Below, in pieces: positions 1 to 42,050 of a DNA stretch of 64,000 nt. A program made the translations under genes and the position numbers. The notes beneath the pieces were generated by a model. That model was not told the DNA's origin. It searched no databases and saw nothing but the letters and a program-made list of their open reading frames with translations. The stretch is taken from positions 30,758,934-30,822,933 of the forward strand of contig NC_063151.1 in assembly GCF_020921035.1 (NCBI RefSeq). The letters run 5' to 3'. How positions within the stretch are numbered: position 1 is the first letter of the stretch; each line of letters begins with the position of its first letter. Source of the DNA: Rhodamnia argentea (Eukaryota; Streptophyta; Magnoliopsida; Myrtales; Myrtaceae).

Positions 1-1306
1 ATGATCCATTTCCTGAAATCTATGGGATATTGGAGCTTGATAAAAAAAAAAAAAGGACTCAACCCGACTAGACCAAATATCTTGGACGTATATGATTCGA
101 GTATCGAGTCGGCCCGGCGCTATACGATTTCGGGCCGAGTCAGGCCTATATGAGACCCGGCCCGATCCGGCACATTGACACCAAGAGGCCGGGGTTCGGA
201 CCTGTCTAGGTCGGGTCCAATGACCTGACCCAGTGCACCTTGTAATAAAAAACAAAAATCAATTGATTAAAAATTAGAAAATTTCAGAAAATATCAAAAA
301 ATAGGAAATAGGTAGGAAATGCCTCCTTTGGCCTATATTGTCTCATTAGGCTTTTACATGCCTGAATATTGTTTATTTTCTATGTTTAATTTGCATGACT
401 TAGTTTTAACTTTGCATGTGAATGTCTGGATATAATTTATTCCGTAATGCATACCTCTAGCACGGTAGTTAGAGTTTAATTTGAAATGCTCGGTTTATCC
501 TTTAACTTGCTGAATTTTGCTAACTATCTACTTTGAGCAAATGCATAAGATTAATATTCCGATGTGGCGATCGACGACAATGCCCACGGAGACGACGGTC
601 CATTGGGGCTTGGCGATGATTGAAGACCGATGTCCGGTTTGGTCCGATTATCGTGTATCCGATCCGCCTATCGGAATTGTTTTATTTAAAATATTGTCAC
701 TATAGATTTGGTTTGCATGTGTACATTTCAATATAATATTTGGCATATTTTACCTGGTTGAGTGCTTATTACAGCACTGTCTTATTGCTTGTTAATTATT
801 TTCTTAAATAATAGGTCAAGGATAAATAGGTAATTGCATAAAATGACAGAAAAACATTATGCATGATCATTTAACACTGGTTAGATGTCCGGTAGGCTTT
901 AAAATAATATGTAGAGTGTGTGATCACTTTAGGAAACATTAACTGGTTAGGTACCGAAAAGGCGCTAATTATTCAATTAGGGTAAACAAATCCCGAGACC
1001 TAGAAGCTCGGGTTCCGAAAGAATCGAGACAACACTCCCATGTCTCGATTGATTTCTAGCCAACTCCAATAGGCTAGTGGGACTCCTAGTAACCTTTTAG
1101 GTTGCTAATCAGTAAAATGAAATCCAAAGTCACGGGAGGTAGGACTTGGGAGAGTCCGCGCCTAAACCAATATGCAATACCTCTAAGTCCGCCGGACCCT
1201 CGGGAGAGGTTAAGGCAAGTCGCGACATAGAGTCGCATGGTATGTAAATTCAAAAGGGATCCAACCTATTAGATCACAAAACACTAAATTCTATTCTTCA
1301 ATACTC

Positions 1307-1530
1307 TATTTGTTTTGCGAAAAATGAACGATTTAAAAAAAAATTCCTAAAATTAGCTTGTATCTCCTGCAAAAATGATAAACAAAAATAAAATATTCAT
1401 CGAAATTGTTTGGACATAAATTATTGGCGATTATATAAATATCTTTTATTAACTAATTATTTCGAGCGATACGAGTGATCATTTTTATGAAAATATATTC
1501 TTCATTTTTTGCGAAATAAACGGAATCTAA
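1307..1530. mobile_element. MITE-like element, family M6
   Basis: A short AT-rich element bounded by imperfect inverted ends: TTTGTTTTGCGAAAAATGAA on the left and, on the right, TTTTTTGCGAAATAAACGG, which reads back as CCGTTTATTTCGCAAAAAA. The interior carries the recurrent tract ATTATTTCGAGCGATACGAG. Related copies lie near 3370-3592, 7403-7628, 24462-24655, 27048-27295 and 42255-42545. It has no coding capacity. A non-autonomous hAT- or Mutator-type DNA element is likely, but I could not fix a target-site duplication. Confidence 0.5.
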
Positions 1531-1936
1531 ACAATACTCGTATGTAGATATTTAGATGCAATTTGTAATCAAAGTTCATCACAACGGCTTGTCCCACCCA
1601 AAAAAAAAAAAAAATTCAACTTTGGAGAACTCCTTGGAGCTGCATTCGTTTCCACAAGTGATGATATGACTGAAAAAAAAAAAAATACGGGGTCATCGTC
1701 ACCGATCGGGATTTGAATCGGATACGTGTCTTCAAAATTTGGGGATAAACTTAGATCAGTTCACAACCTGAACCGTGAGATTATTCTAATGTTCTCTTTT
1801 GACAATTTCAGGTTCATATGGTGTATTAAAGAAATATGCTTGAACGTTTCCACTTTTCTTTGAAATCAAGAATACCCATGTTCATCAAAAGGGATTCAAG
1901 TTGATTTGATGATGCCCAATTTATTACAAAAAATTT

Positions 1937-2344
1937 GGGAAATTCCAAATAAGGGGAACTACCCTCATTTTCTCAAATAAAGAGCCTAAAGTGGACATTG
2001 TTTCAAATAAGGGTCTGACAAAGGCCATTTTTGGCATTTTTGTCATTTTTTTCTTTTTTCCCATTGCTTCTTTTTTTCCTTTGTTGCCGCCAATGAGGGC
2101 TCCCCGGCCATTGTCAAGGGTCGCGAGTGAGGCAACCGCTTAGCCTTGCCGATGACCGGTCCGGCCAACCATCGGCAAAGAGGAAGAAAAAAATAAGGAC
2201 AAAAAAAAAATGATGAAAATGCCATTGGTCATATATTTATTTGAAACAAGGTCCACTTCGGGTCCTTATTTGAGAAAATAAGAACACTTCAAATCCTTAT
2301 TCGAGAAACTAAAAACACTTCAATCCCTTATTTGGAATTTTCCC
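1937..2344. mobile_element. MITE-like element, family M1
   Basis: The ends are inverted: GGGAAATTCCAAATAAGG at 1937, and TTATTTGGAATTTTCCC finishing at 2344. The subterminal tracts (ACCCTCATTTTCTCAAATAA versus TTATTTGAGAAAATAAGAAC) mirror each other too. The centre is GC-rich, with GGCAACCGCTTAGCC-like sequence and no recognisable protein. The mirror copy sits at 6579-6986 and a longer relative at about 35155-36208. This is typical of a non-autonomous Mutator-like element with a GC-rich core. The family assignment is inference. Confidence 0.55.
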
Positions 2345-2425
2345 AATTCAACTGAAGATGGAGGATTGATGGGATATAAAAATGAAGGGAAAATGGAGTA
2401 TAAAGATTCATTAGAGTACTTTCTT

Positions 2426-2968
2426 GGGGAAAAAGTTCAAAAAGTCCTAAGCCTATTGTACTATATCAAATTCAGTCCTAAACCTCTTAATGTTGCTAAT
2501 TGAGTCCTAAACCTTATCATACTTTGTTAATTGAGTCCATCCGATCAATTTTAGCCAAATCACTTACTTGGACATTAGTGATGCCGCGTAGGGCGATCGA
2601 TGTTGACGTGGATAAGTATAATTTCTTTAATTTTTCTTTCTTTCTTTCTTTTCCTTTTTCTTAATCAAGTCCGGCGATGGACGCAACCCTTACTCGGGGC
2701 CGGCAAGGGAAGCAAAAAAGGTAAATTAAAAAGAAAAAGAAAAAGGAAGAATTTTTAAAAAAAAACTCAGAGAATTTTTTAATAAATAATAAAAATTTAT
2801 CCACTTCACCGCCAACCGTTCCATGCAAGACATTTGGTGTCCACATTATCGATTTTTGGCTAAAATTGGCCAAATGAACTCAATTAACGAATTGTAAGAA
2901 GGTTTAAGACTCATGGCAAAATTGAAAGGAAAATGCAATAGATTTCGGACTTTTTCGATAATTTTTCC
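2426..2968. mobile_element. MITE-like element, family M2
   Basis: The left end is GGGGAAAAAGTTCAAAAAGT and the right end reads back as GGAAAAATTATCGAAAAAGT. The subterminal regions repeat the phrase AGTCCTAAACC and GTTAATTGAGTCCAT. A T-rich tract and a short GC-rich core lie between them. Related copies: 5953-6496 (mirror arm), 20323-20754, about 41545-42050, and a half copy near 62690-62950. No transposase is present. Confidence 0.55.
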
Positions 2969-3188
2969 ACTTTCTTGGTGTAAGAGATTAGATTAACATC
3001 AAATTTTAACGGAAATGAGGATGCTTATGTAAAAGTACTAGCAGGAAGGTTGACCTCTCATCATTGCTTGAACCTGACTTTCCAGGCTTATTAGAGGATG
3101 TGTGGAACTCGACAATTTTGAATGGCTTGGGTCATGTTGATACGTAAAATATCGTATCAAAAGCCATTTCAATAGATGTATGGTCCCG

Positions 3189-4960: not shown

Positions 4961-5730
4961 GAGAGTCGTAGACGAACGATGTAGGATGCTTCGACACCCC
5001 TTGTCATGTGCGATTAAGAAGAACCGTGTGAAATTTGATGAACCGAGAGTCACGCACATGAGACAAACCGAGCATTATCTTACCAGAAACTTGCATCGCT
5101 TTCGAATCAGAAGCTTAAATTATTAAATGCAGGGTGGCCCCGAAAAATAACAGATTCGTGATACATCAACAAGTGCATGTATCGCTTTTGAATCTTGTGA
5201 ACTGTGAACCATGATCTTAACGTGTTCCTTGTGTTTTTCCTAGTCCAGTTTCTTACGGCTCTAGCCTCTTGAATTTGTACACGACTTGCCCAACCCTTTT
5301 TGGAATTTTCTTTTCTTCTTCCCAATAAGCACCCTCGGTGGAAAACAGAATGTACGTAAGAAAGAACATATTTTGATCTGTGACTATGGGACCACCTTGA
5401 ATCAAGTGTTCCAGAAGAAATGTCAAAGTGATGATCGATTGACTTTATATTGGTGAATGTCTACTGTAGTTACTTCACAGGCCCCCCTCTCAAGGGGCAA
5501 ATTCTGCAATTTAAAGCATCGACCCGCAGAGTCTAGCAATATGTTCCCTTGATCTGATTTTATGGTTTGGTTTTGCTTATCGATCCGATTTTATGGTTCG
5601 ATTTTGCTGATCCCTTTTTCGCTAACTTAAAAACCTCACCCTATCAATCCGATTTTAAAGTCTCGAAAATTGCTCTTTGCACTCCATCTGATCGATTTGC
5701 TAAAGGCAAGCCTAGCTTCTGTTCGGTCCA
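4961..5730 (+). repeat. Direct repeat D, copy 1
   Basis: This segment recurs in the same orientation at 9360-10143. Both copies start at GAGAGTCGTAGACGA and end at TTCGGTCCA. They differ by scattered substitutions and one short insertion in copy 2 (around 9920). On the minus strand both copies hold a near-identical small open frame of about 70 codons (5107-5325 and 9521-9724). Copy 1 abuts the right inverted-repeat arm exactly at its end. Nothing recognisable is encoded, so this is probably a piece of repeated DNA rather than a gene. Confidence 0.8.
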
Positions 5731-9359: not shown

Positions 9360-10143
9360 GAGAGTCGTAGACGAGCGATGTAGGATGCTTCAACACCCCT
9401 TGTCATGTGCGATTAAGAAGAACCGTGTGAAATTTGATGAACCGAGAGTCACGCACATGAGACAAATTGAGCATTATCTTACCAGATACTTGCATTGCTT
9501 CGAATTAGAAGCTTAAATTATTAAATACAGGGCGACCCCGAAAAAATAACAAATTCGTGATACTTCAACAAGTGCATGTATCGCTTTTGAATCTTGTGAA
9601 CTGTGAGCCATGATCTTAACGTGTTCCTTGTGTTTTTCCTAGTCCAGTTTCTTACGGCTCTAGCCTCTTGAATTTGTACACGACTTGCCCAACCCTTTTT
9701 GGAATTTTCTTTCCTTCTTCCCAATAAGCACCCTCGGTGGAAAACAAATTGTACGTAAGAAAGAACATATTTTGATCTGTGACTGTAGGACCACCTTCAA
9801 TCAAGAGTTCCAGAAGAAATGTCATAGTGATGATCGATTGACTTTATATTGGTGAATGTCTACTGTAGTTACTTCACAGGCCCCCCTCTCAAGTGGCAAA
9901 TTCCGCAATTTAAAGCATCGACCACATGAGCTTCGACCCGTAGAGTCTAGCAATATGTTCCCTCGATCTGATTTTATGGTTTGGTGTTGCTTATCGATCC
10001 GATTTTATGGTTCGGTTTTGCTGATCCCTTTTTCGCTATCTTAAAAACCTCACCCCATCAATCTGATTTTAAAGTCTCGAAGATTGCTCTTTGCACTCAT
10101 CTGATCGATTTGCTAAAGGCAAGCCTGGCTTCTATTCGGTCCA
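9360..10143 (+). repeat. Direct repeat D, copy 2
   Basis: Second copy of the segment at 4961-5730. It diverges after TTCGGTCCA, where copy 1 runs into the inverted-repeat arm, so this copy probably shows the sequence that originally followed. A short extra tract around 9920-9935 (ACATGAGCTTCGACC) distinguishes it. Confidence 0.8.
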
Positions 10144-11036: not shown

Positions 11037-11407
11037 CGTAACCGCGTGCCTGAAAATGGAAGCGAGTTCGGCAGGCATGAAGTCAACCGCTCAGATTCCT
11101 TCGTAACTTCACCAATTGGACAAAGGGGCCACCTGGAAGTCGAGATTAGCCTGCTTTTATTTTAACTCAGTACAATATGACTTGATCGACGACTTCTCCG
11201 AACTCGTTCTTCTCGCGTTTTTCACGTCTGGGCCGATGACGGCTTCTTTAAAGTGTCATTTGCTTGCGGTATTTCCGTGCAAATTCTACACGGTCACTGA
11301 CCACCTCGCGTTAAAAGCTCTTCCGCGCTTCCCCGTCTCTGTGGATTCAACTTCGAACGGAAAGGCTTGATGACTCTAAGCTTCGTTTCGGGGTTTTGGG
11401 TTTTGCA

Positions 11408-12526
11408 ATGGGGAAGGTGTGGGCTTGGTGCTGCGATGGAGTCTCTGCAATCGTCTTCGCTGTTTCTTATGCAGTCTCCGTCTTGTTCTTAGCTATCGGT
11501 ACGTCTGGATTCTTTGCCCTTCGATGTTTCCTTAGTCTCGTCGAAAGAAGTTGTGTGTCAAACATGGAATATCGCATGAAAATCGCAACTCGGGTAAGAG
11601 GAAAAAGGAAAGAGCATTGAGCTCGAGAATTTTTCAGTTGGAAATATTACCTCGGTGTTGCTTTCGTAGTTTATCTTCTACAGTTCTTGGGAATGAATGA
11701 AGTTGAGTTCAGTATAGTAGGACGTTGATTTTGATTCCATGTTAAATTTCCATTTGACCATGGGACATCACTCTTTTGCAGTCGAAAGTACATCCGGAGC
11801 TTTAGTAGGAGTTCTGATCGGCGTGAAAAGCAAGAACAACCTCTTCTACAGCATGGCGATAGGAGCAGTTACCGGCGGCAGGTTCTTGACTAAAGCCTTC
11901 AGGATGTCCGTTTCTTTCTGGCTGTCTGATGACTGTTTGTTCAGCAACATTCTTCGATCGGTAAGTTCTCGGCCTCTCGGGGCTCGAGCTTGAGTCAGTC
12001 GTAACTTCTTAGCTATTCACTTCCTAATCCCACATCTGCTCTCAGCAGACTAACTCGACTACGGAACTTGATGCCGGGAAATTAGTTCAACAATTGTTGG
12101 ATAGTCTCACCCTGTCAAGATTAGAGCAGACTCCGGCACATGCATACAACATGGTCAGCGAAATCGCAATGGATGGGGACAGCGTATCGAGGAATTCATC
12201 TTATAGGATTCACAAAATCATAATAACGGAGGACCACTTAATGGATTCTTTAGGAAAAAGAAACTCTTGCTCAATATGCCTTCAGGTATAAATTCCTAGA
12301 CCAGACCGAGAAAATTCGACCCATAACTCGTTTTACCAGGTATTAGAACTCCATTCCATCGATTAATCTTGCTTCGTGTTTACCGATCCAGGACTTCGAA
12401 TGTCGAGATGCGGCGAGGAGACTGCCTGACTGTCGCCACTTGTTTCATCTGCGTTGCATCGATAAGTGGATTTCCAGGCAAAGATCTTGCCCTTTATGCA
12501 GAAGTCCCGTAGTTCAAGTGAATTAA
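11408..12526 (+). CDS. RING-H2 zinc finger protein, NEP1-interacting-protein-like (copy A)
   Basis: Likely membrane-anchored E3 ubiquitin ligase. Four exons (11408-11498, 11782-11960, 12049-12285, 12392-12526), all with GT-AG introns, give 213 residues. Residues 9-31 are a hydrophobic N-terminal segment. Residues 31-90 hold a second glycine- and alanine-rich stretch (GALVGVLIG, AIGAVTGG) typical of the NIP1/NIP2 group. The C-terminus is a RING-H2 finger with CSIC, CRHLFHLRC and CPLC, all eight metal ligands present. The ATG at 11408 is chosen because it aligns with the start of copy B. An out-of-frame ATG at 11370 opens a 41-codon upstream frame overlapping exon 1, absent from copy B, which might lower translation. 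It is tandem-duplicated with 28154-29259. The NIP family comparison is from memory; the RING call is certain. Known NIPs sit in plastid or other membranes and bind partner proteins. Confidence 0.82.
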
Positions 12527-13599
12527 TTAGGTTATGCATTTTTTTTTCCACCCAAGTAGTTTAAAGATCACACATTTTTTATTTCCATTTCTTGGTCTAC
12601 TGTTACATTGGAAAACTCTGGTGAGTTGTGCTATGAGGGAGCTTTTGCATTCAAATTGCTCATCACCTGTAAATATATCCAAACGGAAGGGTAGAAAATG
12701 CTAAGTGTCGTATCAATCAAAGACTTAACAACCCTGACTTTGTAAGTATGTACTATAAAATTCGTCTTGGAAAAAGACTTTCTGCTTAACGACGAGCTGG
12801 TATATGTCACCATCAGTGACCTTTAATGATAATTGCGAGACTACTAAAGAAAAGAAAGTTGATTATATAACAGTTTTTGGATGACCGTAGATAATAATTA
12901 ATCAAAAATTATTGTGAGGTCCATTCTCTTAAGAATTTATGTCTCACAAGACACTGTTATTCTCATAGTCATCAAAAACTATTATGCTAATAAAGTCCGA
13001 AAAGAAAAAAAAAAATAGGTGAATGCGTGGCATCTTTTCGAGGACAACACCTGTGATAACATCGTTTCCAATTTTCCCTTTATTTAAGCTATAAATTAGA
13101 CGTTATACTTGATTTTTATATAGTCGACTACTTGTAACATGTCCTAATCCCCATGGTGAGAACAAATTGACAACTGGCACGTCCCTCCCATGAGTGATGT
13201 TATAATGGTAACGTGGCAAGTGTCAATATCTGGTTTTATTGTGTTTGGGTGCGAACGTCCTATTGGTGTTGAATTCTGACAGATCTTATTGTATTGCTAC
13301 TACCAAAGATAATATTCTTAGAAGTGTTACATTTATACGCAAATCGAAAGGGCATCTGCCATATCATAGACAACCAGTTTGTAATTTTTGAAATTATCAT
13401 CAATATTATTGAGAAGGTATAAAAAGAATATACTGACACAATATGAAATAGGATAAAACCTACTCCATTTTTTTTTTGATCGAAAAAACGTACTCCATTT
13501 GATGGGTAAAATATAACAACTTATAAATAGATCTTGCCAACATCGAAACGGTAGATTCAATGGGGAACCGATAGACTCACTTATAAGTAATTTGTAAAT
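12527..13599. other. Intergenic region between copy A and the CACTA element
   Basis: The first 170 bases match the region downstream of copy B, including the CTGTAAATATATCCAAAC tract at 12669. The rest has no counterpart in the second copy and no gene, and may be old inserted DNA into which the CACTA element later jumped. Confidence 0.5.
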
Positions 13600-13602
13600 T
13601 TG
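13600..13602 (+). other. Left target-site duplication of the CACTA element
   Basis: TTG directly before CACTAC. The same TTG follows the right end at 19892-19894. A 3-base duplication is diagnostic for CACTA/EnSpm insertion. Confidence 0.85.
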
Positions 13603-13630
13603 CACTACAAAAAAATAAGGATTTAGCCAC

Positions 13631-16600
13631 GGAAAATTAGCGACGAAAAAAAATCGTGGCTAATTTGCGACGAAAATAGCCACGAAAACAAAATTCGTCG
13701 CTATTTGCGACGACAATAGTGACTAAAAAATTCGTCTCTGATTAGCGACAAAAATAGCGATGAATAAATTTTTCGTCGCTAATTGGCGACGAAAATAGCG
13801 ACGAAAAAATATTCGTTGCTAAATTGGAGATGAAACTAGCGACGAAAATAAATTCGTCGCTAATTTGCTACGAAATTAGTGACGAATCACTTTTTCGTCG
13901 CTAAATTAGCGACGAAAAAGTGATTCATCGGTAAACGAACTTCTGTAATTTAGTGACCAAAAAATAGTTCATAACTAAATTAGTGACGAAAATCCATTTC
14001 GTTGCAAAATGCGTCGCAAAATTTGCGACAAAGGGGATTTTCATTGCTAAATTACAGATTTTTTTTGTTTCTATAGTCCACCAACATCTTTTCTTCGTTA
14101 ATTTATACAATTAACGATGAAATTTGCAATTCTCATCGGATTAACCACGTTCTACTATAAATAATTCAAACAAATACTTGGGTAAGTGTTTTTGACATGG
14201 TTATTTTTTTTCAATTTCAAAGTAATTGTCTTGTCACAAATAGAATTTAATTTTTAAAATTATGGTCTTAATTAAGAGCATTCAACATTAGATATGATAT
14301 TTTTAATATTTTATAAATCTTTAATTCGTGTTGAGGCACAATGCAAAAAGATAGGTCTTGGATGTATAATAAGAACTTACCCGAACGTCGAGGATTGGCC
14401 GATGAGTTTCATCTTGGGTTGAAACAATTTCTGGACTTTGCTCCTAATTACAAATCATTCTCAATTACATTGCTGCTATTGATCCTAATTACAAATCATT
14501 TTCTATTTCTAATTATCTTGGTCGATCTCTATGCTGCTGTATAATAAGATAGTACTTATGCTCATTTCTATTTCTATGCCGATGGTTAGTGGTGATACAT
14601 TTTAAGAAGCTTCAAATTGTGACATCTACTTTTAATGCATACGGGAGGCTGATGCTGTTGTTTTTGTTCTTGGTGAGATGGAGCATAGATAATCTGTTAG
14701 CGAATGAGATCTTTTTCCGAGGCAAGGATGAGGCCTTTTTCCGACGAAGATTGTTTCGTCACTAATTTGGCGAATTCTTTTGAATTCTATAGTATAGAAT
14801 TCGTTGCTAATTTTAAGAAGCTTCATATTGTTTCCATTTTTGTTGCTCATTTAGCAACGAAATTTCCAATATGATCGAATTCCAAACTTGAATTATTTTG
14901 AATTCTATTTTTTTCAAAAATAAGAATAGAAAGAAAATATTTAATAATAAATAGAATAAATAAAAATTTAATAAATTAAGAAATTGAAAATATATGAAAA
15001 TAGAATATGAATAAAAATAAAAAAAATATTCAAATTAGCGATGAATTCATTTTTCCGTCGCTAAATTAGCGATGAAAGAAAAATTTGTAGCTAATAGAAT
15101 ATGAATAAAAATAAAAAAGAATAGGGACAAAAAAACTATTTCGAAACTATTTGGTCGCTCAATTACTGACGAAAAAATGGTTCGCCGCTAAATTAGCGAC
15201 GAAACAAATCATTCATCGCTAAATTAGCGATGAAAAAACAGGTTTGTCGCTAAATTAGCGACAAAACATATTATTCGTCGCTAAATTAGTGACGAAAGAA
15301 ATATTCGTCGCTAATTGAACATGAATAAAAAGAAAAAAAAATTCAAATTAGTGACGAATTCGTTGTTTCGTCGCTAATTTAGTGACGAAAAAAAAAATTT
15401 CGTCGCTAATATAATATGAAAAAATGAAAAAGAAAATATTTAATTTAGCGACGAAAAAATGGTTCCTCACTAATTTAGTGACGAAAGATTTTTTTGTCGC
15501 AAATGGAATATGAATAAAAATAAAAAAAATATTCAAATTAGCGACGAATTCATTTATTTGTCGCTAATTTAGCGACGAAATAAATTGTTCGTCGCTAAAT
15601 TAGTGACGTATCCTTTTTTTGTCGCTAAATTAGCAATGAATCAGTTATTCGTCGCTAATATAATATGAAAAAATGAAAAATAAAATATTTAATTTAGCGG
15701 CGAAAAAATGGTTCGTCGCTAATTTAGTGACGAAAGATTTTTTCGTCGCTAAATGAGCGACGAAAGATATATTCGCCGCTAATGGAATATGAATAAAAAT
15801 AAAAAAAATATTCAAATTAGCGACGAATTCATTTATTTGTCCCTAATTTAGCGACGAAAGAAATTGTTCGTCGCTAAATTAGTGACGTATCCTTTTTTTG
15901 TCGCTAAATTAGCAACGAATCAATTATTCGTCGCTAATATAATATGAAAAAATGAAAAATAAAATATTTAATTTAGCGACGAAAAAATGGTTCGTCGCTA
16001 ATTTAGTGACGAAAGATTTTTTCGTCGCTAAATGAGCGACGAAAGATATATTCGCCGCTAATGGAATATGAATAAAAATAAAAAAAATATTCAAATTAGC
16101 GACGAATTCATTTATTTGTCCCTAATTTAGCGACGAAAGAAATTGTTCGTCGCTAAATTAGTGACGTATCCTTTTTTTGTCGCTAAATTAGCAACGAATC
16201 AATTATTCGTCGCTAATATAATATGAAAAAATGAAAAATAAAATATTTAATTTAGCGACGAAAAAATGGTTCGTCGCTAATTTAGTGACGAAAGATTTTT
16301 TCGTCGCTAAATGAGCGACGAAAGATTTGTTTCGTTGCTAAATTAGCGACGAAAGAGATATTCGTCGCGAATGAAATATGAATAAAAAGAAAAAAAATAT
16401 GCAAATTAGCGATGAATTCATTTATTTGTCGCTAATTTAGCGACGAAAGAAATTGTTCGTCGCTAAATTAGTGACGTATCCTTTTTTTGTCGCTAAATTA
16501 GCGACGAATCACTGATTCGTTGCTAATATAATATGAAAAAATGAAAAATAAAATATTTAATTTAGCGACGAAAAAATGGTTCGTCGCTAATTTAGTGACG

Positions 16601-16840
16601 AAATATTTTTTCGTCGCTAAATTAGCCACGAAAGATTTTTTTCGTCGCTAAATTAGCGACGAAAGAGATATTCGTCGCGAATGAAATATGAATAAAAAGA
16701 AAAAAAATATACAAATTAGCGACGAATTCATTTATTTGTCGCTAATTTAGCGACGAAATAAATTGTTCGTCGCTAAATTAGCGACGTATCCTTTTTTTGT
16801 CGCTAAGTTAGCGACGAAAATACGTTTCCGTCGCTAAAGT
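13631..16840. repeat. Left subterminal repeat region of the CACTA element
   Basis: Dozens of copies of GCGACGAA/TTCGTCGC, mostly as facing pairs separated by CTAAATTA or similar, giving 20-24 base palindromes. Part of it (about 15480-16840) has a higher-order period. The tract TGAATAAAAA recurs at 15511, 15790, 16069, 16379 and 16689, that is, two units of 279 bases followed by two of 310. The longer units contain one extra motif pair of 31 bases. An internal section (14140-14800) has few motifs. Confidence 0.85.
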
Positions 16841-16864
16841 CTCCAAACAAAACCCATTTACTGC

Positions 16865-17200
16865 GATCTTTCTTTCCCTTTTCCCTCTCCATCCCCAACC
16901 TTTTGACCCCACGCCTCGACTCCCTCCTCTCGCGGCGCTTCACATCCCTCAAGTCCATCAACCTCAATCCATTTCGCGGCAATCCGTCCTCCGTCCTTCG
17001 TCCTCCGCCAGATCGCGCAGTTCCCATTGCCCCTCGAGCGCCTCGACCTCTTGAACTAGGAGTTCCTCCGCTTCGATGGGTTGCGCAAGATGGGGTCCAA
17101 GTTCATGGCTTCGAGGCCTTGGTGCTGTCCAAGATTTGGCTTCTAGGAGACGACGATCGCCTGCTGCATTCCTTGACTGCGAGACGCCGATCTGAGCCGC
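16865..17200 (+). pseudogene. Captured gene fragment, F-box/LRR-like (tentative)
   Basis: GC-richer than the repeats around it. The frame opening near 16903 reads TPRLDSLLSRRFTSLKSINL. A second frame continues with QIAQFPLPLERLDLLN and the first resumes with ALVLSKIWLLGDDD. This pattern (a leucine-spaced unit, then a 'VCSKIG-L-D-DL' type phrase) resembles leucine-rich-repeat regions of plant F-box proteins, with frame changes. It cannot make an F-box protein as it stands. The assignment rests on remembered family patterns only, and it could be another leucine-rich gene. A 179-codon open frame (16903-17442) runs through it and into the poly(A) polymerase piece, so a chimeric peptide is possible if transcribed. 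Confidence 0.4.
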
Positions 17201-17234
17201 TGGCCTGCACCAAGGCGCCTCCTGCCAGAGAAGC

Positions 17235-17415
17235 ATGGAGTTGGAGAAGGTTGGATTTTGGTTTTCTTGGCATCTTGTTTTTTGTTCAGTGTTTGCAAAT
17301 TTCGTTTGTTTCACTAGAATTTCTCTTGGGCACGCAGTTTTTGGTCGATGCTGGACTCTGTGAGAGCCAAGAGGAAGCTTTGAAGATAGAAATGATTCTC
17401 CGTCGGATTGGGCAG
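17235..17415 (+). pseudogene. Captured fragment of a nuclear poly(A) polymerase gene
   Basis: Two exon pieces joined by a good intron: MELEK ending at 17249, then a GT...CACGCAG intron, then 17338-17415 reading FLVDAGLCESQEEA and ending RRIGQ before a GTAAAT donor. In plant PAPS proteins the phrase ELEKFLV-AGLYES-EEA...R-IDQ comes just before the nucleotidyltransferase core. The following exon (IVK-WVKQLT) and the catalytic part are missing, so the piece cannot be active. Exon boundaries coincide with codon phase and introns are retained, showing genomic rather than retro-capture. The match is from memory but specific. Confidence 0.75.
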
Positions 17416-17779
17416 GTAAATTGTGGGTTATACGTGGTTTAGATATTGAGGATGCTATTGCTTGGATTGAGTTTAAATCTGCGTATTGATGTCTTATTGC
17501 ACAAGAGGTCTATGATTCGTAGTTAAATTAATATTCCATGGGAGGAGCTGTTGTTGGTTAATCTTTTGTATTTTGTTTCTGCCAAGTCTGACGATTTATT
17601 GAAAGTAGTGAGGCCATTCTATGTTACTTTTTTGTGCTAATCACAAGTATGAAATTCGATTTGTAAATGCCGTTGGTATCTGAGGTATGGAGTTGTTGGT
17701 TCAAGTGTCGTATGCATCCTGTAGAACAATAGAGTCCATTTAGGACCCATCGACAGTTTCTGAGCAGAAGCTTGATCAT

Positions 17780-18660
17780 GTGGTAGAAGAACTTGAGGGC
17801 ACGCCAGATCAACGCACAACAAATAAACAAGATAGAAGAACTGTGGAAGACGAATCCTGATGCTTCCCTTGAGGATCTTGAGAAGCCTGGTGTGGATGAT
17901 GAGCCTCAACCTGTAGCACTGAAGTATGAAGATGCATATCAGGTTCCTACATTGACTGTGGTTCAGAGAGTGTTCTTGATTACTAATTGTGTCTAACTTA
18001 TGGATGTTGCTGTTCGCTGCAGTATCAAAATGTATTTGCTCCGCTCATCAAGCTTGAAGCTGATTATGACAAAGTATGTGGCCATAATCTTTCTTGTGCT
18101 CTCAGTTCTTGTGTTACAAACTTTAACAGTTATTGGTGATGCCTTTATCTTGCAAACAATTACTCGTTTCTACTATGTATGCTCTGTTGAGAAGACACTT
18201 CTACTTACCTGTTCGGTGAAGCTTAATATCCCATTTGTATTACTGAATTTGTTGTAGATGATGAAAGAATCCCAGAGCAAGGACAATGTCACTATCTGAT
18301 GGGATATTGGTCTGAACAAGAAGCGCATTTCATATTTTATTTTCCCAAAGGTGACTCAAGATGTGTTTATTCTTGCAAAATACATTGTTTTTTTTTTCTT
18401 TGCTTTGCTGCTAAGTTAAGATGCATCTGTTGTTAATTTAGGAAGACAATGAGTTGAGACTAATGCCTGATGATGAGTTGAGGCTCCGTTATTCAGGAGA
18501 TGCTGCTCATCCAGCATGGCAATCTGTGGGGCATGTGGTATGTCTTTTAAATTTCTTATGTGCCCAAAAGATATATTAACTCTTCTTTCTTGTGTTCTAG
18601 GGGCTCACCTAATACTTTTTCATTTCAGATTAAGCTAACCGCACAAGAAGAGGTTGCTTC
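17780..18660 (+). pseudogene. UPF1: Captured multi-exon fragment of UPF1 (nonsense-mediated decay helicase)
   Basis: Five consecutive exon pieces with intact GT-AG sites. About 17790-17942 ([20 protein letters not shown], then [18 protein letters not shown]); 18023-18073 (YQNVFAPLIKLEADYDK); 18258-18350 (MMKESQSKDNVTI, stop, WDIGLNKKR); 18442-18537 (EDNELRLMPDDELRLRYSGD); and 18629 to about 18660 (IKLTAQEEVA), after which similarity ends. In UPF1 this stretch lies after the cysteine/histidine-rich domain and covers the start of the helicase core (1B/stalk region). A TGA replaces the conserved arginine before WDIGLNKK in the third exon. ATPase motifs are absent. This is a host-gene fragment carried by a transposon, not a gene. 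Transcripts could yield small RNAs matching the parent UPF1. Confidence 0.88.
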
Positions 18661-18879
18661 CCTTCCTGATGCAACCTTAATAATCTGGTGTTTTTTTTTT
18701 TCCTTTTGTCCATAAATCCTACTATTAGACCCTCATGTTAGTCCCATTGTCCATTGATATGTCAAACTTCAATTTTTAAGGGTGATTTGGCTTAAAGATA
18801 TCTCGTTTTTCTATTTTGTGTTATTTGTGTCTGTCAGTTTATATGCCCCTGCTTATTTTCTTTCCATGTTCACCTTCAG

Positions 18880-19015
18880 ATTGATTGACTGGGCACATGA
18901 AGTTCTCTCTTCCAATGAAGATGATGTCATGGCCCCGAAGTTGTTTCTTCAGAAGATCTGGTGTTGCTTGCTAGAGATAGCATTGTTGCAGTACTTAAGA
19001 ATCTATGTTAAGTGA
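18880..19015 (+). pseudogene. Possible further captured fragment, unidentified
   Basis: A non-repetitive open stretch inside the CACTA element between the UPF1 piece and the right repeats. One frame reads DWAHEVLSSNEDDVMAPK and another continues LVLLARDSIVAVLKNLC before a stop, which looks like ordinary coding sequence split by a frame change. I do not recognise the parent gene. Confidence 0.3.
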
Positions 19016-19209
19016 ATGGTAGATGAATGGTTTTTTGTTTCTTTAGAAAACTCTCTCTTCCAATGAATGGTAGATGAATGTATTTTGTTTGTATATTATT
19101 ATAATATTTAAATCTTGCTTTATCAATGTGAAATACAAATTCTAGAAATTAATTTTATTTTTAAGTGTATATAAAATTGAAAATTAAAAAAAATTATTTT
19201 ATTATACGA

Positions 19210-19880
19210 TTACAAATTATAAAAGTTCATTGCAAAATTCGTCCCATGCTTGGCCGTCGCAAAATGCATGGCTGAACAAATTTCATCGCAAAGTTCGTCG
19301 CCAAATTTATCCTCGAACAACGTTTGTAGCAACAAAAATTTTCGTCGCAAATCGTCGAAATTCGTTCGTCGCAAATTAGAGACGAAAGTATTCGTCGCAA
19401 AGTAGCGACGAAACGTGTTTATCGCTAATTTGCGACGGAAAAAATTCGTCACAAAGTTCGTCGCAAATTAGTGACGAACTTTAATTTTTCGTCGCTAAAT
19501 TTTGCGATGAAGAATTGGCGACGAACTTTTTTTTGTCGCTAATTTTCATCGCTAATTTGCTACATAATATATTTCGTCGCAAAATTCGTCGCTAAATTAG
19601 CGACGACAAAAGTCTTTCGTCGCTAATTTGCCACGCACGTATTCCGTCGCAAAATGCGTCGCTAATTTGCGATGAACAATTTTGTCGCTAATTTGCGACG
19701 GATATTTTTTCGTCGCTAATTTCGTCGCAAATTAGCGACGAATTGTAAACTTTTCGTCACTAAATTTTGCGACGCCGTATTAGCCACGAATTTTTTTTCG
19801 TCGCAATTTTCGTCGCAAAATCAATTAGCGGCGAATTTTGCCAAAATTTTCGTCGCAAATTTCGTGACTAAAACCTTGTT
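19210..19880. repeat. Right subterminal repeat region of the CACTA element
   Basis: The same TTCGTCGC/GCGACGAA motif as on the left, at high density but in a shorter and less regular form, often as CGTCGCAAA rather than CGTCGCTAAA. There is no higher-order period. Confidence 0.85.
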
Positions 19881-19891
19881 TTTTTGTAGTG

Positions 19892-19894
19892 TTG
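19892..19894 (+). other. Right target-site duplication of the CACTA element
   Basis: TTG directly after the terminal GTAGTG, matching the TTG at 13600-13602. Confidence 0.85.
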
Positions 19895-20322
19895 CCTAAT
19901 ACAATGGCTGTCATTCAAAGGGATGCATCTCTTGATAGGTAGTTGATTGACTAGTCTACAACCAAAATTAATTATTGTCTTGTATACATGATTCTATCTA
20001 GCTAGTGACTAAGATGATACATTTAAACATTGAAGAGAGTTGATTACCCTCTAAGGAAAGTGAAAAAAAAAAGTAACAGATAAAGATTCGAATAATCAAT
20101 TTTGGAATTTGGATCCAACCAGATCTGATTCGAGACCGTAATGATATGTATCTATTATCTAATGATACAAAATTTGTTGTGGGACGTTAATAGAAATCCT
20201 TCATTTAGTGAACAGGTTCTGTCCATGAAAGGCAACATTTAAAGAACGTAAAACTAGTGGATTTAAACCTTATGTGGCTATTTTAGAGCTTCAATAGAGA
20301 ATGTGGTGCTTGAACTTCTGTA
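19895..20322. other. Intergenic sequence right of the CACTA element
   Basis: No gene or ordered repeat seen. The sequence is AT-rich and unrelated to the second duplicated block. Confidence 0.5.
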
Positions 20323-20754
20323 GGGAAAATTGTTCAAAAGTCCTAAACCTATTATAATGGTAATTCGGTCCTAAACTTTTCAATTTGACCAAATTAGTTC
20401 TAAAAATTTGATAATCTTTCAATATAGTCATTTTGGCCAATTTTAACCGAAAATCCCTGACATTGACGATTGTAAAAATTCCAAAAATTCAGAAATTGTT
20501 TAAAAAAAAATTCAAAAAGTTAAAAAAAAAAAGATTGAGAAAAATGCAAAAAATTGGAAAAATATTCCAACTCAAAGTCGACCGTGCCACGTAGAATGTC
20601 AACGCTGATTGGGCTGCCAAGTTAGTTATTTCCAACCAGTTTTGGCTACAATGGAAGATCGTCAAATAGTTTAGAATTAAATTGGTCAAATTGAAAAGTT
20701 TGAGATTAAATTAACCCCTGCACAATAGATTTAAGACTTTCTAGAAAATTGTCT
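20323..20754. mobile_element. MITE-like element, family M2
   Basis: The left end GGGAAAATTGTTCAAAAGTC is mirrored by the right end, which reads back as GAGACAATTTTCTAGAAAGT. The subterminal AGTCCTAAACCTATTATAA faces TTATAGATTTAAGACTT-like sequence. It has an A-rich core and no coding capacity. Same family as 2426-2968. Confidence 0.55.
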
Positions 20755-21369
20755 CAACTTCTATAGGCATCCATCCAAGCTTTACTCTTCTTCACTCAGT
20801 TGTTTATGCGTTTCATAAAGACTACTTTCATACTTATCAAAATTGTACGACTCGATCCAATTCGAGACCCTAACAACACACATCTATTTAGTCCTTTACT
20901 TTTTAATTTTATCAATTTAGTCATAAACGTTTTAGTGAAATTCCAGTGAAGCCCTTTAGGTCAAATTTGACCAGAAATCTCTTACAAGACGATCCAATCA
21001 TCGTTGGCCGTCGCATATGGCACGTTACCGCGTTAGCGATTTTCGGCAAAAAAGTAAAGGATTATATTGTACTTAGACAAGACTCCTTATATGTACGAAC
21101 TTGTTATCAGAAATAGACTAAGGTTTCTAGATTTGTCCAGGAAATTCATGGACTTTGCTCTAGCAACTGATGACATGTCACATATGCATTCCCTCTTATC
21201 CTTTCTGAACATACCAGAAGATTACAACATATATCGGAGGATATAGAACCACGACAGCAATGTGTTGCTTATCACGCCGCGACAAGCCACCGTCTCGCAC
21301 TTATCAGCTGGTGAATGCACCTTCTGTACTTCCTTACCTACTTTCGCGGCGAACGTTTATTTGGAAACA

Positions 21370-22175
21370 AGTATACTATAAGTATCAATAGTTATGTATG
21401 ATGCTCATTTTAGTATCAAAAATTTCAAAAGAATCGCTTAAGTGCCAACTCCAATCTAGTTGACCGGAAATCCTACGTGGATTTTTTATTAATATCTGAG
21501 CTGACATGATTCGCCGAAAAGTCTATTTGGACTTCCACGTGGACTTCTAACCTTGTAAGTAAACTAAAAAATTTTAAAAAATTAAAATAAAAAATAATTT
21601 AAAAAAGGGGGCCTCGTTTTGGTGGTGAGGGCTGTGTAAGCCCTCGCCGCTGCCGCCCTACCATCGCTTGCTATGGTCAACAAGGGTGGGGACGGTTGGC
21701 GAGCCCACGTTCGGCAAATCTACTCTATACCAGATGAGCAAAGCGTTTGAAGAGAAGATATTCCTATGGGAAATTCCATATGAACACCATGCGGGCTTCG
21801 CAAAGGTGGTTCGATCACGCGTAGAAGGTGACGAGCTTCGAAGCGAGGAAGCTGTCGGGGACGACGGAAGATGAGGCAATGCTTGCATGGAGCTGCTTGG
21901 CTTGGCAAGTGAGCCTTGTGCTAGGTCAAGCCTCGCTCGATAACCACCGCGGGCCATCCCTCACCCTCGTCACCTAAACAAGGCCCCATTTTCTTTTTAA
22001 TTTTTATCTTATTTTTAATTATTTTTAAAAAAATTTAGTTTATTTTTAAGGTTAGAAGTCCACGTAGACTTTCCGGCAAGTCGCCTCAGCTCATATATAT
22101 ATAAGCCACGTACGATTTCCAGCCAAGCAGATTGGAGCTGACATTTAAGTGATTGTTTTGAAAAAGTGAGGGCCT
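21370..22175. mobile_element. MITE-like element, family M3, with GC-rich core
   Basis: The flanks mirror each other over about 200 bases: GCTTAAGTGCCAACTCCAAT on the left against ATTGGAGCTGACATTTAAGT on the right, then TCCTACGTGGA against CCACGTACGAT, and AACCTTGTAAGTAAACTAAA against TTTAGTTTATTTTTAAGGTT. The GC-rich core (21600-21960) contains several short open frames but no domain I can name. A related element is at about 38090-38893. It interrupts the left copy of the segmental duplication. Confidence 0.6.
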
Positions 22176-22184
22176 AATACCTAA

Positions 22185-23040
22185 AAATATCCCAACTTTA
22201 GCATTTATCTCAATTATATCCAAAACTTTTTTTGCCTCATAAAAAACCCTGAACTTTTAATTTTGTCCCAATTCTACCCCATAATACCAAAAAACCCCCT
22301 ACTTTAATATTTGTCCCAATCATATCCAAAATTATTTTTTTGTTTCATAAAAAATCTCCAACTTTTACTTTTGTTCCAATTATACCATGGTTAGCCTTTC
22401 GTCCGGAATCACTATTAATTAATCCTAAGTGGCTTGAATTTCCTCGTCGAACTTACCAATGAATTCTTGAAATTCAAAAATAGCAGATTTTATGGACGAT
22501 GAGATTTGAGATCATTCGTCCAAATAATTAGATCTCCACGTCTAACTGTTCTTTAGGCTATTGAGTATTGGGGATAATTTGAAATGCGCCATCTTGAATG
22601 GTGTTGTATCTCTCTTCAATTTGTGGGGGAATCAGACGACATAAGAGAAATTAGGATTTTTTTTTCGTATCAGTTTTATTGAGATATAATTCATTAATAA
22701 CGTGAAAATGCCACGTAAGATTAACTAATGGTGATTATGAACAGAAGACTAATGGTGGTAAAATTGAGATAAAAGGAAAATTTGGGGATTTTTTATGAGA
22801 TAAATAAATAGATTTGGATATAATTGGGATATATACTAAAGTTGAGGGTTTTTTGGGTATTAGGCCGAAAGAATTGAGACAAAAATAAATGTTGAATTTT
22901 TTTTTTTTTTGTATTAGATCGGTAGAATTGAGAGAAAAATAAAAGTTAGAGGTTTTTTATGAGACAAAAAAAAATTCGGATATAATTGAGACAGAGGTTA
23001 AAGTTAAGTTTTTTTTTTATAATGTGCCTTAAAGGGAGCG
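22185..23040. mobile_element. MITE-like element(s), family M4, possibly nested
   Basis: Repeated phrases of the type CCAACTTTAGCATTTATCTC and AATTATATCCAAAACTTTTT occur near the left end. Their reverse complements (AAAGTTGAGGGTTTTTTGGG, ATATAATTGGGATA) lie near the right end. Each phrase occurs two or three times, suggesting one copy inside another. A related array is at about 46925-47455. Confidence 0.5.
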
Positions 23041-23399
23041 TCGTACGTAGCTTTTGGTATTTTTAGCGTATTTCTCTCTGTTCCATCAATAGGTAAGTTT
23101 TTTTTTTTTTTTTCTTTTGATCGGACATTGACAGGTGAGTTTGGGGTTCATAATGTGTCCACTCTAAAAGCTGAGAACTAAGAAATTCTAGGTGCAGTCC
23201 ACGTTAAACAAACGCAAACATAATTTCTGTCGGCGATTCAAATGAAGAATTCTAGGTATATCTTTCTGCCCACGGAACAGTTCACTCGACAACTACAGCC
23301 CTGAAAATTAAAGAAGGGATTTTACTTTATTTTTTTTCATCCGACAATGTATAAGGGACGAGTATACAAGGACGAATGAGAAGTGAGAAGCTAGTGAGC

Positions 23400-23690
23400 C
23401 ATCATAGGTTGCTCCTCAGAGCTGGTGTTGCTTCAGGGAAGCCAACAGATGAGACGAGAGAGCACCGTCGAGTGGTGACAGCATCGAGATGAATAGAAAT
23501 CACGAATCATTACTTGAAAAAGGGAAATGGAGGAGGAAAACCATGCAGGACAATCCAAATGGTTCGCACGAGAAAGAAAGAGAGAGACCGAATCCTCTGG
23601 AGATAGAGCTTCTCGTCCAATCACTGCTTTCATAGCTTGGATATCTAGCCCAGGCGCGCAAGACAACACTTCTGACCTAGAATTTTTGCT
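23400..23690 (-). pseudogene. Decayed 3' fragment of V-ATPase subunit B
   Basis: Reading the minus strand, 23589 to about 23670 corresponds to exon 13 of the intact gene at 30461-30544. It gives IQAMKAVIGREALSPED where the intact gene has [17 protein letters not shown]. The downstream intron, with its GTCTCTCTCTTTCT start, also matches. The 5' half of the exon has drifted beyond recognition and most of the last exon is gone, as are all upstream exons. It is the left-copy remnant of the segmental duplication that includes the RING-H2 gene, lies in the same convergent orientation as in the right copy, and cannot encode a functional subunit. Confidence 0.85.
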
Positions 23691-27540: not shown

Positions 27541-28153
27541 CGTACCATCCTTGTTCGCTAGTGAGACCGCGTGGCGAAAATGGAAGAGAGTTCGTTCGGT
27601 AGACATGAAGTCAACTACTCGGATTCGTAGGTTGACTCGATCCTACGTTCTTCTGCTTCTTCTTTTTTATTTTGGGTTTCTTCTTCTTGAATTTTGGCGA
27701 TTTTAGATAACAATTTCACTGCACAGGACATAAGGAAAGTCCAACACTCTACCTAAAAAGCCAGAGGAGGACAAAGAAACTGCCACTCCCGTTTCGTCCA
27801 CGTCTCTTCATGTGGAAAAGTCATCTCAAGAATTAAATGGGATTTTATTTTCCTTCGAGGGAAGAATTTGCATGAACATCACCTGTTTGAAAAAGAACAG
27901 AGAGGAGACAATCCCATTCTTGACCACCTGGAACACGACGTTCATCTGCTTCGGCCATTTTCTTCTCGCATGCTTCATGTTTTTGGGCTGACGGACTATT
28001 GACCAATTCCGCCCGCGGGAACGTTCGAATGTGGCTGCGCTATTTCCACGATCTTTCGACGACGGCTTCGTATTAAGGGGATCCAACTTTGAACGCCAAG
28101 GCTTTAGTGTCAAGCTTCGTTCCGGGGGGGAGGTTCAGTTCAGGCTTCGTCTT

Positions 28154-29259
28154 ATGGAGAAGGTGCGGGTTTGGTGCTGCTGTGGAGTCTCTGCAATCAT
28201 CTTCAGCGTCTCTTATGCAGTCTCTGTCTTCTTCTTGGCTATTGGTAGGTCCAGTTTTCTCGTTAGTCGCCTTTTTATTTCTCTCTCTCTCCAAGATTAT
28301 TTGCTTTTGAATGATTCCTCACGAGACGAACATCAGCCAATCACCAAATCAGAAATAGCATTTCCATCGCATGCTTTCCGGTTTCTTTCCTCGGAACAAC
28401 CTCGTTGTTCCGAGCACGAAAGGAAAATATCTGACTAGCAAATTTTTCTAATCACTAAGTTTTTGATGTTGTAATACCACATCATCTTTCTAACTGCGAT
28501 GGCGCCGCGGGATATTACTCTTTTTGCAGTAGGAAGTACACTGGGAGCATTCGCCGGAGTTCTGCTCGGCATAAAAAGCCAGAGGGGCCTCTTCTGTAGC
28601 ATGGCGGTAGGAGCAATTTCAGGCGGCGCGTTCTTGATTAACGCCTTCAAAACATCCGTTTCTTTCTGGTTCTCCGATGATTGTTCACCTGGCGACCTTC
28701 TTCGATGGGTAAGTTTTCAGCTTCTCGAGGCTCGAGATGATAACTTATACACTTTCTAATCCCACTTCTTCTCTTAATAGACTGACTGGACGGCAGAACT
28801 TGATGCGGGAGAATTAGTGCAACAGTTCTTGTATAGTCTCACCCTGTTGAGATTAGAGCATACTCTGGCATATGCTGACAATATGATTACCGAAATCGTG
28901 GTAGACCCGGCCAAAATATCGAAGCGTTCATTTAAAAGGATTCATAGGATCAGGCTAACAGAGGACCACTTGATGGATTCTTCAGGAAATAGAAACTCCT
29001 GCTCGATATGCCTTCAGGTTTGTACTTTTAGACTAGACTAAGAGAATTCAACCCATGACTCATTTTTACCTGGTATTAAAACTCCATTCCTTTGCTTAAT
29101 CCTCATTCTTGTTTATTGATCCAGGACTTCGAATGCAAAGATGTGGCGAGGAGGCTGCCTGCCTGTCGCCACTTGTTTCATCTGTGTTGCATCGACAAGT
29201 GGATTTCCAAGCAAAGGTCTTGCCCTTTATGTAGAAGTCCCATAGTTCAGGTGAATTAA
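28154..29259 (+). CDS. RING-H2 zinc finger protein, NEP1-interacting-protein-like (copy B)
   Basis: Same structure as copy A: four exons (28154-28244, 28530-28708, 28781-29017, 29125-29259) of exactly the same lengths and phases, 213 residues. The N-terminal hydrophobic segment (VSAIIFSVSYAVSVFFLAIG) is followed by the glycine-rich membrane-like stretch and a C-terminal RING-H2 with CSIC, CRHLFHLCC and CPLC. In the last exon the two copies differ at 6 of 44 residues and in the first at 7 of 30, with more change in exon 2. The finger is therefore conserved while the membrane part drifts. Both look functional. It lies convergent with the V-ATPase B gene. The role is inferred as a membrane-bound E3 ligase; the substrate is unknown. 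Confidence 0.82.
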
Positions 29260-30138
29260 TCAGGTTATGCATTCTTTCAGTCAGGTAGTTTAAGCAGGTC
29301 GCCAATTCTTTCATTTCTTGGTCTTGGTCTTGGTCGATGGTGAACATGCTATAAGACAGCTTCTGTATTGAAAACGCAACACCTGTAAACATATCCAAAC
29401 AGAAGGGTCACAAATTGTACTTAAACACAACTCCCTTCATATGTACCTTTTGTTAGGACAGGCTAATATGTCGACACTTGTCAAAGACATTCATGGACTT
29501 TGCTCAAGCAACTGTTGACATGTCATGTATGCATTTCCGCTTATCCTTTTGGCATCTTTTGGAACATGCCAAAAGATTTTAACATATATCAGAGGATATC
29601 GAACGGTGAGAGCCAAGCGTTGCTTATCAAACCGCAAGAAGCCACCATCTCACACTTATCAGCTGGTGAATGCCGCTTCTATGCTTCCTGAATTACTTTC
29701 GCGGTGAACATTCCATTAACAGGTGAGTTGAGCGTTCATAATGTGTCCACTCTAAAGGCAAGAACTAAGAAATTCTACGTGCAGTTCACATCGAACAGAT
29801 GCGTACAAATTTTCTGTATCTACTCTCCGCGATTCAGATTTGAATTATAAGCATATCTCTCTCCCAACATTCTACAAATATCCGAAACAGTTCATTCAAT
29901 AAATACAGCCCTGAAAATATAGGGGAGGAATTATAGTTCTACGCGACTATGTATAAGGGAGGAGCATATAAGGATGAATTTGGCTGGAGAAGCTAGTGAG
30001 CCATCGTAAGTTGCTCCTTAAAACAGGGGTTGGTTCAGGGAAGCCAACAAAAGATGGCACTGCCCTGGTGAGCAGCATCAAGACTAATCATGTGATGAAA
30101 TGAACTGATTTTGGTGACAAGCTTGCAGCTCCTTCAGA

Positions 30139-34432
<4,294 letters not shown>

Positions 34433-41544: not shown

Positions 41545-42050
41545 ACATCGGTGTTAAAGTACAAAAAAAAAGTTTTAAATATATTGCATCGGTATCAATT
41601 CAATTCCAAATATTTCAATTTGATTAATTTAGTTCTAAACAAATTGACCACTTAAAAAATCATTGACATGGACGTTGATCATCCTATGTGGCATGGCCAG
41701 AGGCGACATGGATAATTTTTTAATTTTAATTTTTTTGATATTCTTTGTTATTTTTTCCTCTTTTTTTTTTTGTGTCCTTCCCTTTTTGCCCAAATGTGGG
41801 GCACCCTTACCTAGATCTTGGTGAGGGACCTCATTGCCTGGAGTTGTAAAATTTTTTTATCCATATCGGCATCGGTCGTGCCACGTAGGACAACCGATTT
41901 CTATGTTAGCGATTTTCAATCAAAATTGGCTAGATCGACTACATTACGAAATCGCCAAAAGGCTTGACCCTAAATTGATTCAATTGAAAGATTCAAGATT
42001 GAATTTGTACAAATGCAATACCTCTAGAATTTTTTTTCCATAGTTTTTTC
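41545..42050. mobile_element. MITE-like element, family M2
   Basis: The left part reads TTTAAATATATTGCATCGG then AATTTAGTTCTAAACAAATT. The right part mirrors it with AAATTGATTCAATTGAAAGA and TTGTACAAATGCAATACCTC. A T-rich tract and the phrase GCCACGTAGGACAACCGA are shared with other M2 copies (for example 20323-20754). Confidence 0.5.

What the first reader, a model, noticed from the sequence alone, without database searches (positions are those of the whole stretch)
13603..19891. CACTA transposon carrying pieces of UPF1, poly(A) polymerase and a probable F-box/LRR gene
Perfect CACTA-type ends, a TTG target duplication and motif-dense subterminal regions define a complete non-autonomous element. 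Its unique interior is a mosaic of host-gene pieces with introns retained, all in the same orientation. UPF1 and poly(A) polymerase both act in mRNA quality control and 3' processing, so if this element is expressed or amplified it could feed small RNAs against two central RNA genes. Gene-capturing CACTA elements are known in plants (soybean, Brassica, grasses), but this combination is new to me.
Basis: partly seen in the sequence, partly recalled or inferred. Interest (0 to 1): 0.78.

Follow-up and report, generated by a model that had tools for sequence, protein, structure and literature searches.

The report
Gene-fragment-carrying CACTA transposon in plant
This is a 6.3-kb plant jumping gene of the CACTA kind that has picked up broken pieces of host genes (UPF1 and, very probably, a poly(A) polymerase); such elements are well known in plants, so it is real but ordinary.

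Summary
A complete CACTA element spans 13603-19891 with a TTG target duplication, terminal inverted repeats matching at 13/14 (26/30 extended), and dense subterminal repeats of which 71 of 72 exact copies in the window lie inside it. Its interior holds a genomic UPF1 fragment: five exon pieces, four GT-AG introns, 92/131 columns identical to human UPF1, one in-frame TGA. A 30-residue piece fits the poly(A) polymerase NTPase profile in register (+22 bits; nine shuffles at most +4), a test that leans on a recalled anchor. The "F-box/LRR" piece was not confirmed. Most likely it is a Pack-CACTA-type element that captured host DNA and moves by transposase supplied in trans (movement inferred). Soybean Tgm-Express1 (5.7 kb, five host gene fragments, exons and introns) is a close precedent. 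Small-RNA action on UPF1 or PAPS is untested. New member of a known kind.

The parts
13600..13602 (.). target-site duplication TTG, left copy
13603..13632 (+). 5' terminal inverted repeat (CACTACAAAAAAA...; 13/14, 26/30 with the other end)
13603..14070 (+). 5' subterminal block A: GCGACGAA 14, TTCGTCGC 8 copies (at most 1 mismatch)
14341..14442 (+). probable start of the CACTA transposase gene (MQKDRSWMYN...), Pfam Transpos_assoc positions 1-27 of 74; truncated remnant
   Evidence: 15.5 bits, E=0.019, below the curated cut-off of 27.7; unrelated families reach similar scores in other ORFs of the element, so the case rests on which family it is and where it lies
15001..16840 (.). internal repeat array B: palindromic TTCGTCGCTAAATTAGCGACGAA-type units in 279/310-bp higher-order repeats, motif balanced between strands (39/42, at most 1 mismatch)
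16841..17234 (+).
17235..17415 (+). probable poly(A) polymerase piece: MELEK exon end 17235-17249, intron 17250-17337, FLVDAGLCESQEEALKIEMILRRIGQ exon 17338-17415, then a GTAAAT donor
   Evidence: (+22 bits in register); negative alone
17799..18658 (+). UPF1 genomic fragment: exon pieces 17799-17942, 18023-18073, 18258-18350, 18442-18537, 18629-18658, all phase 0; 4 GT-AG introns
18297..18299 (+). in-frame TGA in the UPF1 fragment, at a position that is R in human UPF1
18659..19011 (+). unidentified further piece (LIDWAHEVLSSNEDDVMAPKLFLQ...) after the UPF1 homology ends
   Evidence: no family found
19216..19891 (-). 3' subterminal block C: TTCGTCGC 23, GCGACGAA 12 (at most 1 mismatch), mirror bias to block A; ends in the 3' TIR 19862-19891
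19892..19894 (.). target-site duplication TTG, right copy
29406..29424 (.). paralogous locus without the insertion: copy 2 of a local segmental duplication is contiguous at 29414/29415 where copy 1 has 8.37 kb extra (12700-21065)

Best explanation
The feature is a non-autonomous, gene-fragment-carrying CACTA (En/Spm) DNA transposon of the Pack-CACTA kind. Shown: both ends, the 3-bp target duplication, subterminal repeats with mirrored bias, a UPF1 fragment with exons and introns, and one stop in that fragment. Probable: a poly(A) polymerase piece, and a truncated transposase start at the 5' side, so that the element derives from a transposase-coding one whose coding region was lost. Inferred: it moves by cut and paste when a related autonomous element supplies transposase, with the GCGACGAA/TTCGTCGC repeats and the TIRs as binding sites. 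Inferred: host DNA was captured as genomic DNA, in more than one step if two or more loci contribute, as in the published model in which two nearby copies fuse by aberrant excision and enclose the DNA between them. The pieces are most likely passengers with no coding function.
For: Ends, TSD and unique pairing; 71 of 72 exact motif copies of the window inside (30/30 and 41/42); mirrored strand bias GCGACGAA:TTCGTCGC 14:8 at the 5' end and 12:23 at the 3' end; Transpos_assoc match from model position 1, + strand, 738 bp from the 5' end; UPF1 E=1.2e-60, 92/131 columns identical to human, 4 GT-AG introns; PAP_NTPase +22.2 bits in register against -1.0 to +4.0 for 9 shuffles; paralogous locus lacking the insertion. 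Capture model and multi-locus Pack-CACTA elements: PMC8903248 (passages and one section) and PMC13317346 (passages); Tgm-Express1 in PMC1947982 (abstract and two sections).
Against: The transposase match is below Pfam's cut-off, covers 27 of 74 positions, and 3 of 10 other ORFs of the element gave unrelated sub-threshold matches of 12.3-16.5 bits, so its score alone proves nothing. The PAPS test uses an anchor recalled from memory and the piece has no direct hit. No second copy with these ends and no intact donor genes could be looked for. Array B and the transposase remnant lie between the 5' end and the captured DNA, so the build is more complex than a simple Pack-CACTA. The paralogous locus lacks 8.37 kb, not just the 6.29-kb element, so it is not a base-exact empty site.
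Confidence: 0.93

Rival explanations
1. The element is expressed and its captured pieces give small RNAs (or chimeric spliced RNAs) that act on the intact UPF1 and PAPS genes.
For: The array at 15840-16818 would fold far better than shuffles if transcribed (-443 vs a mean of -215 kcal/mol, 0 of 20 shuffles as good), so a transcript through it would be partly double-stranded. The four UPF1 introns keep GT and AG, and Tgm-Express1 fragments are spliced into chimeric transcripts. A review passage reports captured sequences as siRNA reservoirs in maize.
Against: No expression data. The hairpin array is not the captured sequence. No gene was found that spans the element: it lies 1.08 kb past the RING-H2 frame and before an opposite-strand V-ATPase relic, so the intron read-through of the soybean wp case is not indicated; gene finding here was by ORFs only. 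The same review passage says that silencing of essential donor genes may be removed by selection; that UPF1 and PAPS are essential is recalled.
Confidence: 0.06
2. The interior is not captured DNA but independent insertions or pseudogene debris that CACTA ends happen to bracket, or an assembly artefact.
For: The right flank also holds repeat debris (20361-20713 inverted repeat), and ends, array B and gene pieces differ sharply in composition.
Against: One clean TSD brackets the whole; no Ns in the window; no copy of either 13-bp end with at most one mismatch inside the element other than the two ends (one with two mismatches at 17815, in the UPF1 exon).
Confidence: 0.04

Closest known systems
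Tgm-Express1 (CACTA, soybean wp allele; PMC1947982, abstract and two sections read)
   Same: CACTA superfamily; 5.7 kb; several unrelated host gene fragments with exons and introns
   Different: Carries fragments of five other genes (UP, CDC2, FPK, malate dehydrogenase, cysteine synthase); sits in an F3H intron and is transcribed from the F3H promoter. Ours carries UPF1 and probably PAPS, and no gene was found that spans it
Pack-CACTA elements of Arabidopsis, maize and rice (PMC8903248, passages and one section read)
   Same: TIR core CACTACAA (as used for Arabidopsis), TSD, captured coding DNA, in maize often from several loci; the paper suggests that some keep small transposase fragments
   Different: Host unknown here; sister copies and donors not testable
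Tpn1 family of Ipomoea nil (only passages about it in PMC8195511 seen)
   Same: Shared subterminal regions around a wide range of captured gene fragments
   Different: Different host; its sequence was not compared

Membership tests
CACTA (En/Spm) superfamily | TIRs beginning 5'-CACTA | tested here: met
   CACTACAAAAAAA at both ends, 13/14 and 26/30
CACTA (En/Spm) superfamily | 3-bp target-site duplication | tested here: met
   TTG on both sides
CACTA (En/Spm) superfamily | repeat-rich subterminal regions with direct and inverted short motifs | tested here: met
   blocks A and C; 71 of 72 exact copies of the window lie inside the element
CACTA (En/Spm) superfamily | relationship to a TNPD/TNP2-type transposase gene | tested here: inconclusive
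   Transpos_assoc 15.5 bits, E=0.019, below cut-off 27.7; 14.2-15.6 bits for three other cuts; unrelated families reach 12.3-16.5 bits in 3 of 10 other ORFs
Pack-CACTA / gene-capturing CACTA | contains host gene fragments between the TIRs | tested here: met
   UPF1; PAPS probable
Pack-CACTA / gene-capturing CACTA | no functional transposase of its own | tested here: met
   only a 34-codon remnant recognised; the longest stop-to-stop frame inside is 211 aa and has no Pfam match; 5 further ORFs at 14.4-14.9 kb (one search lists 36 there) and the other 9 ORFs show no transposase match. Not all short ORFs were scanned
Pack-CACTA / gene-capturing CACTA | sister elements with the same ends, and intact donor genes, elsewhere in the genome | not testable with these tools
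   no genome held for this window

The most novel reading that the evidence does not exclude
A CACTA element carrying pieces of two RNA-surveillance/3'-processing genes next to a self-complementary repeat array makes double-stranded RNA that lowers UPF1 and PAPS activity and so helps transposon transcripts escape quality control.
Probability: 0.02. Interest if true: 0.8.

Novelty: new member of a known kind. Interest (0 to 1): 0.2.

Why it matters
It adds one well-delimited example of genomic-DNA capture by a CACTA element, with a probable transposase relic and a paralogous locus without the insertion in the same 64 kb. It would help place the capture in time once the host genome is searched. 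It does not change the general picture.

Tried and rejected
F-box/LRR label: hand-joined readings against Pfam gave 0 families, the 211-aa frame that covers the stretch gave 0, and PDB gave only E of 0.77 and above; left as unconfirmed. The 3' piece LIDWAHEVL...: 0 Pfam families and one PDB row at E=0.37, to a toluene o-xylene monooxygenase component. The peptide [18 protein letters not shown]... before the UPF1 piece: only a sub-threshold match to YyzF, rejected. Sub-threshold matches to DUF3591, Peptidase_M24_C and DUF7516 in three chance ORFs of the element: rejected as chance, and they show how little a 15-bit match means by itself. PAPS piece against three animal/fungal sequences directly: 218, 475 and 453 of 2000 shuffles scored as well, so no support at that distance; against a recalled plant sequence 18/31 identical and 0 of 2000 shuffles as good. 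Relatives in viral contigs: UPF1 query, 26 pattern matches, none confirmed; repeat motif, 0 exact matches. Rfam (gathering threshold) and tRNA scans of the window: nothing. Literature for this combination: CACTA, gene capture, transposon, UPF1; 25 papers hold 3 of 4 terms, 20 listed; 3 listed rows mention both CACTA and UPF1, their titles are not about captured UPF1, and none was opened; CACTA, poly A polymerase, captured, host gene fragments; 10 papers, all listed, 0 mention poly A polymerase. Searches searched wider terms and the repeat motif; one found 2 unrelated papers. So the combination was not found in these searches of an incomplete library. PMC4938662 (passages) added nothing.
Full report
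What is there. The window is plant nuclear DNA: Pfam recognises an ATP synthase alpha/beta and V/A-type ATPase C-terminal domain (read here, from memory of the family, as V-ATPase subunit B), a proteasome Rpn3-type subunit, an expansin and a RING-H2 domain. No host genome is held, so all comparison is within the window, with Pfam, with PDB sequences and with papers.

Boundaries. The element runs from 13603 to 19891 (6289 bp) and is flanked by TTG on both sides. The ends agree at 13 of 14 positions and 26 of 30. Of 46 CACTA/TAGTG pairs 0.2-20 kb apart with 10/14 or better, it is the only one with a TSD. That loose criterion alone is not rare in simulated sequence (20 pairs in 40 simulated windows); 13/14 without a TSD occurred 7 times in 40, and 10 times in the real window, 8 of the others being inside the element's repeats and 1 in a large inverted duplication. 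The combination with the repeats makes it firm: GCGACGAA has 30 of 30 and TTCGTCGC 41 of 42 exact copies inside the element. With one mismatch allowed, the 5' block is biased to GCGACGAA (14:8), the 3' block to TTCGTCGC (12:23), and the inner array is balanced (39:42).

Transposase relic. At 14341-14442 a frame reads MQKDRSWMYNKNLPERRGLADEFHLGLKQFLDFA. It matches the first 27 of 74 positions of Pfam Transpos_assoc at 15.5 bits, E=0.019, under the curated cut-off (14.2-15.6 bits for three other cuts). From memory, this domain begins CACTA transposases. The score itself is not convincing: 3 of 10 other ORFs of the element gave unrelated matches of 12.3-16.5 bits. What speaks for it is that the match is to the one kind of family expected, on the expected strand, from model position 1, 738 bp from the 5' end. 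Five other ORFs of that region matched nothing.

Array. 15001-16840 is made of palindromic units in 279/310-bp higher-order repeats. As RNA, 15840-16818 folds at -443 kcal/mol against a mean of -215 for shuffles, 0 of 20 as good. This follows from the palindromes and says nothing about transcription.

UPF1. Five exon pieces between 17799 and 18658, all in phase 0, with four introns that keep GT and AG, read 138 codons with one in-frame TGA at 18297-18299 and no frameshift. Against human UPF1 (2wjv) E=1.2e-60, 92 of 131 aligned columns identical; Pfam UPF1_1B_dom 69.3 bits. The stop stands where human UPF1 has arginine; a CGA to TGA change, as expected from methylated cytosine, is a possible cause (inference). 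The introns show that genomic DNA, not mRNA, was captured.

Poly(A) polymerase. The piece MELEKFLVDAGLCESQEEALKIEMILRRIGQ alone gives no Pfam or PDB match and is not better than shuffles against three animal/fungal PAPs. From its second residue on, joined in register to a plant PAP stretch recalled from memory, it raises the Pfam PAP_NTPase score from 69.3 to 91.5 bits and carries the alignment back to model position 21; nine shuffles gave 68.3-73.3 bits. The recalled stretch itself hits PAP structures at E=3.3e-27. I take the identity as probable, about 0.9 (my judgement). An intron (17250-17337) lies inside the piece and a GTAAAT donor follows it.

Other pieces. The stretch after 18659 remains unnamed.

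Surroundings. The window holds a tandem segmental duplication of a RING-H2 gene and a 3' part of the V-ATPase gene: 11343-12699, 21066-21357 and 23126-23652 against 28079-29415, 29414-29712 and 29714-30524, at 72-79% identity over the aligned stretches, with gaps between them. The V-ATPase relic of copy 1 (23433-23690, minus strand) has only a sub-threshold Pfam match (16.1 bits). Copy 2 is contiguous at 29414/29415 where copy 1 has 8366 bp extra (12700-21065) that contain the whole element. This shows the locus without the insertion, though not a base-exact empty site, since about 2.1 kb of other DNA is extra too, or was lost from copy 2. The element lies 1.08 kb past the RING-H2 reading frame and no gene spanning it was found, by ORFs only.

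Mechanism and comparison. The best reading is a non-autonomous Pack-CACTA-type element. Published work describes CACTA elements with captured gene fragments: Tgm-Express1 with five, spliced into chimeric transcripts (PMC1947982, abstract and two sections); [quoted passage not shown] Tpn1 types share subterminal regions around gene fragments (passage in PMC8195511); some Chenopodium CACTA elements carry gene fragments upstream of the TAD domain, and some carry satellite arrays (PMC8978399, passages). Capture by fusion of neighbouring copies is described in PMC13317346 (passages) and PMC8903248 (passages). The original 2019 paper is not held.

The small-RNA idea. It is possible but unsupported here. 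A review passage reports such silencing for Helitrons, Pack-MULEs and Sireviruses in maize and adds that individuals in which essential donors are silenced may be removed by selection. The joint presence of UPF1 and PAPS needs no functional reason: with many captured fragments per genome, some pairs will share a pathway (inference).

Verdict. Real, correctly delimited, mostly correctly read, and ordinary: a new member of a known kind.

Noticed in passing
11343-12699, 21066-23652 vs 28079-30524: Tandem segmental duplication of a RING-H2 gene and a 3' part of a V-ATPase gene; the first copy keeps only a V-ATPase relic (23433-23690, minus strand, sub-threshold Pfam match) and has extra DNA in several places.
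   Followed up: partly
5-3188 vs 8934-5733; 4961-5730 vs 9360-10143: A 3.2-kb inverted repeat at 88% identity, combined with a 0.77-kb direct repeat at 93.5%.
   Followed up: no
20361-20713; 41569-41648: MITE-like inverted repeat beside the element, with a related stretch elsewhere in the window.
   Followed up: no
2263-2334, 36092-36196: 31-bp tandem repeats with similar-looking units (TCCTTATTTGA... / CCCTTATTTGA...) at two distant places.
   Followed up: no
46998-47256: Two tandem copies of a 129-bp unit at 88%.
   Followed up: no
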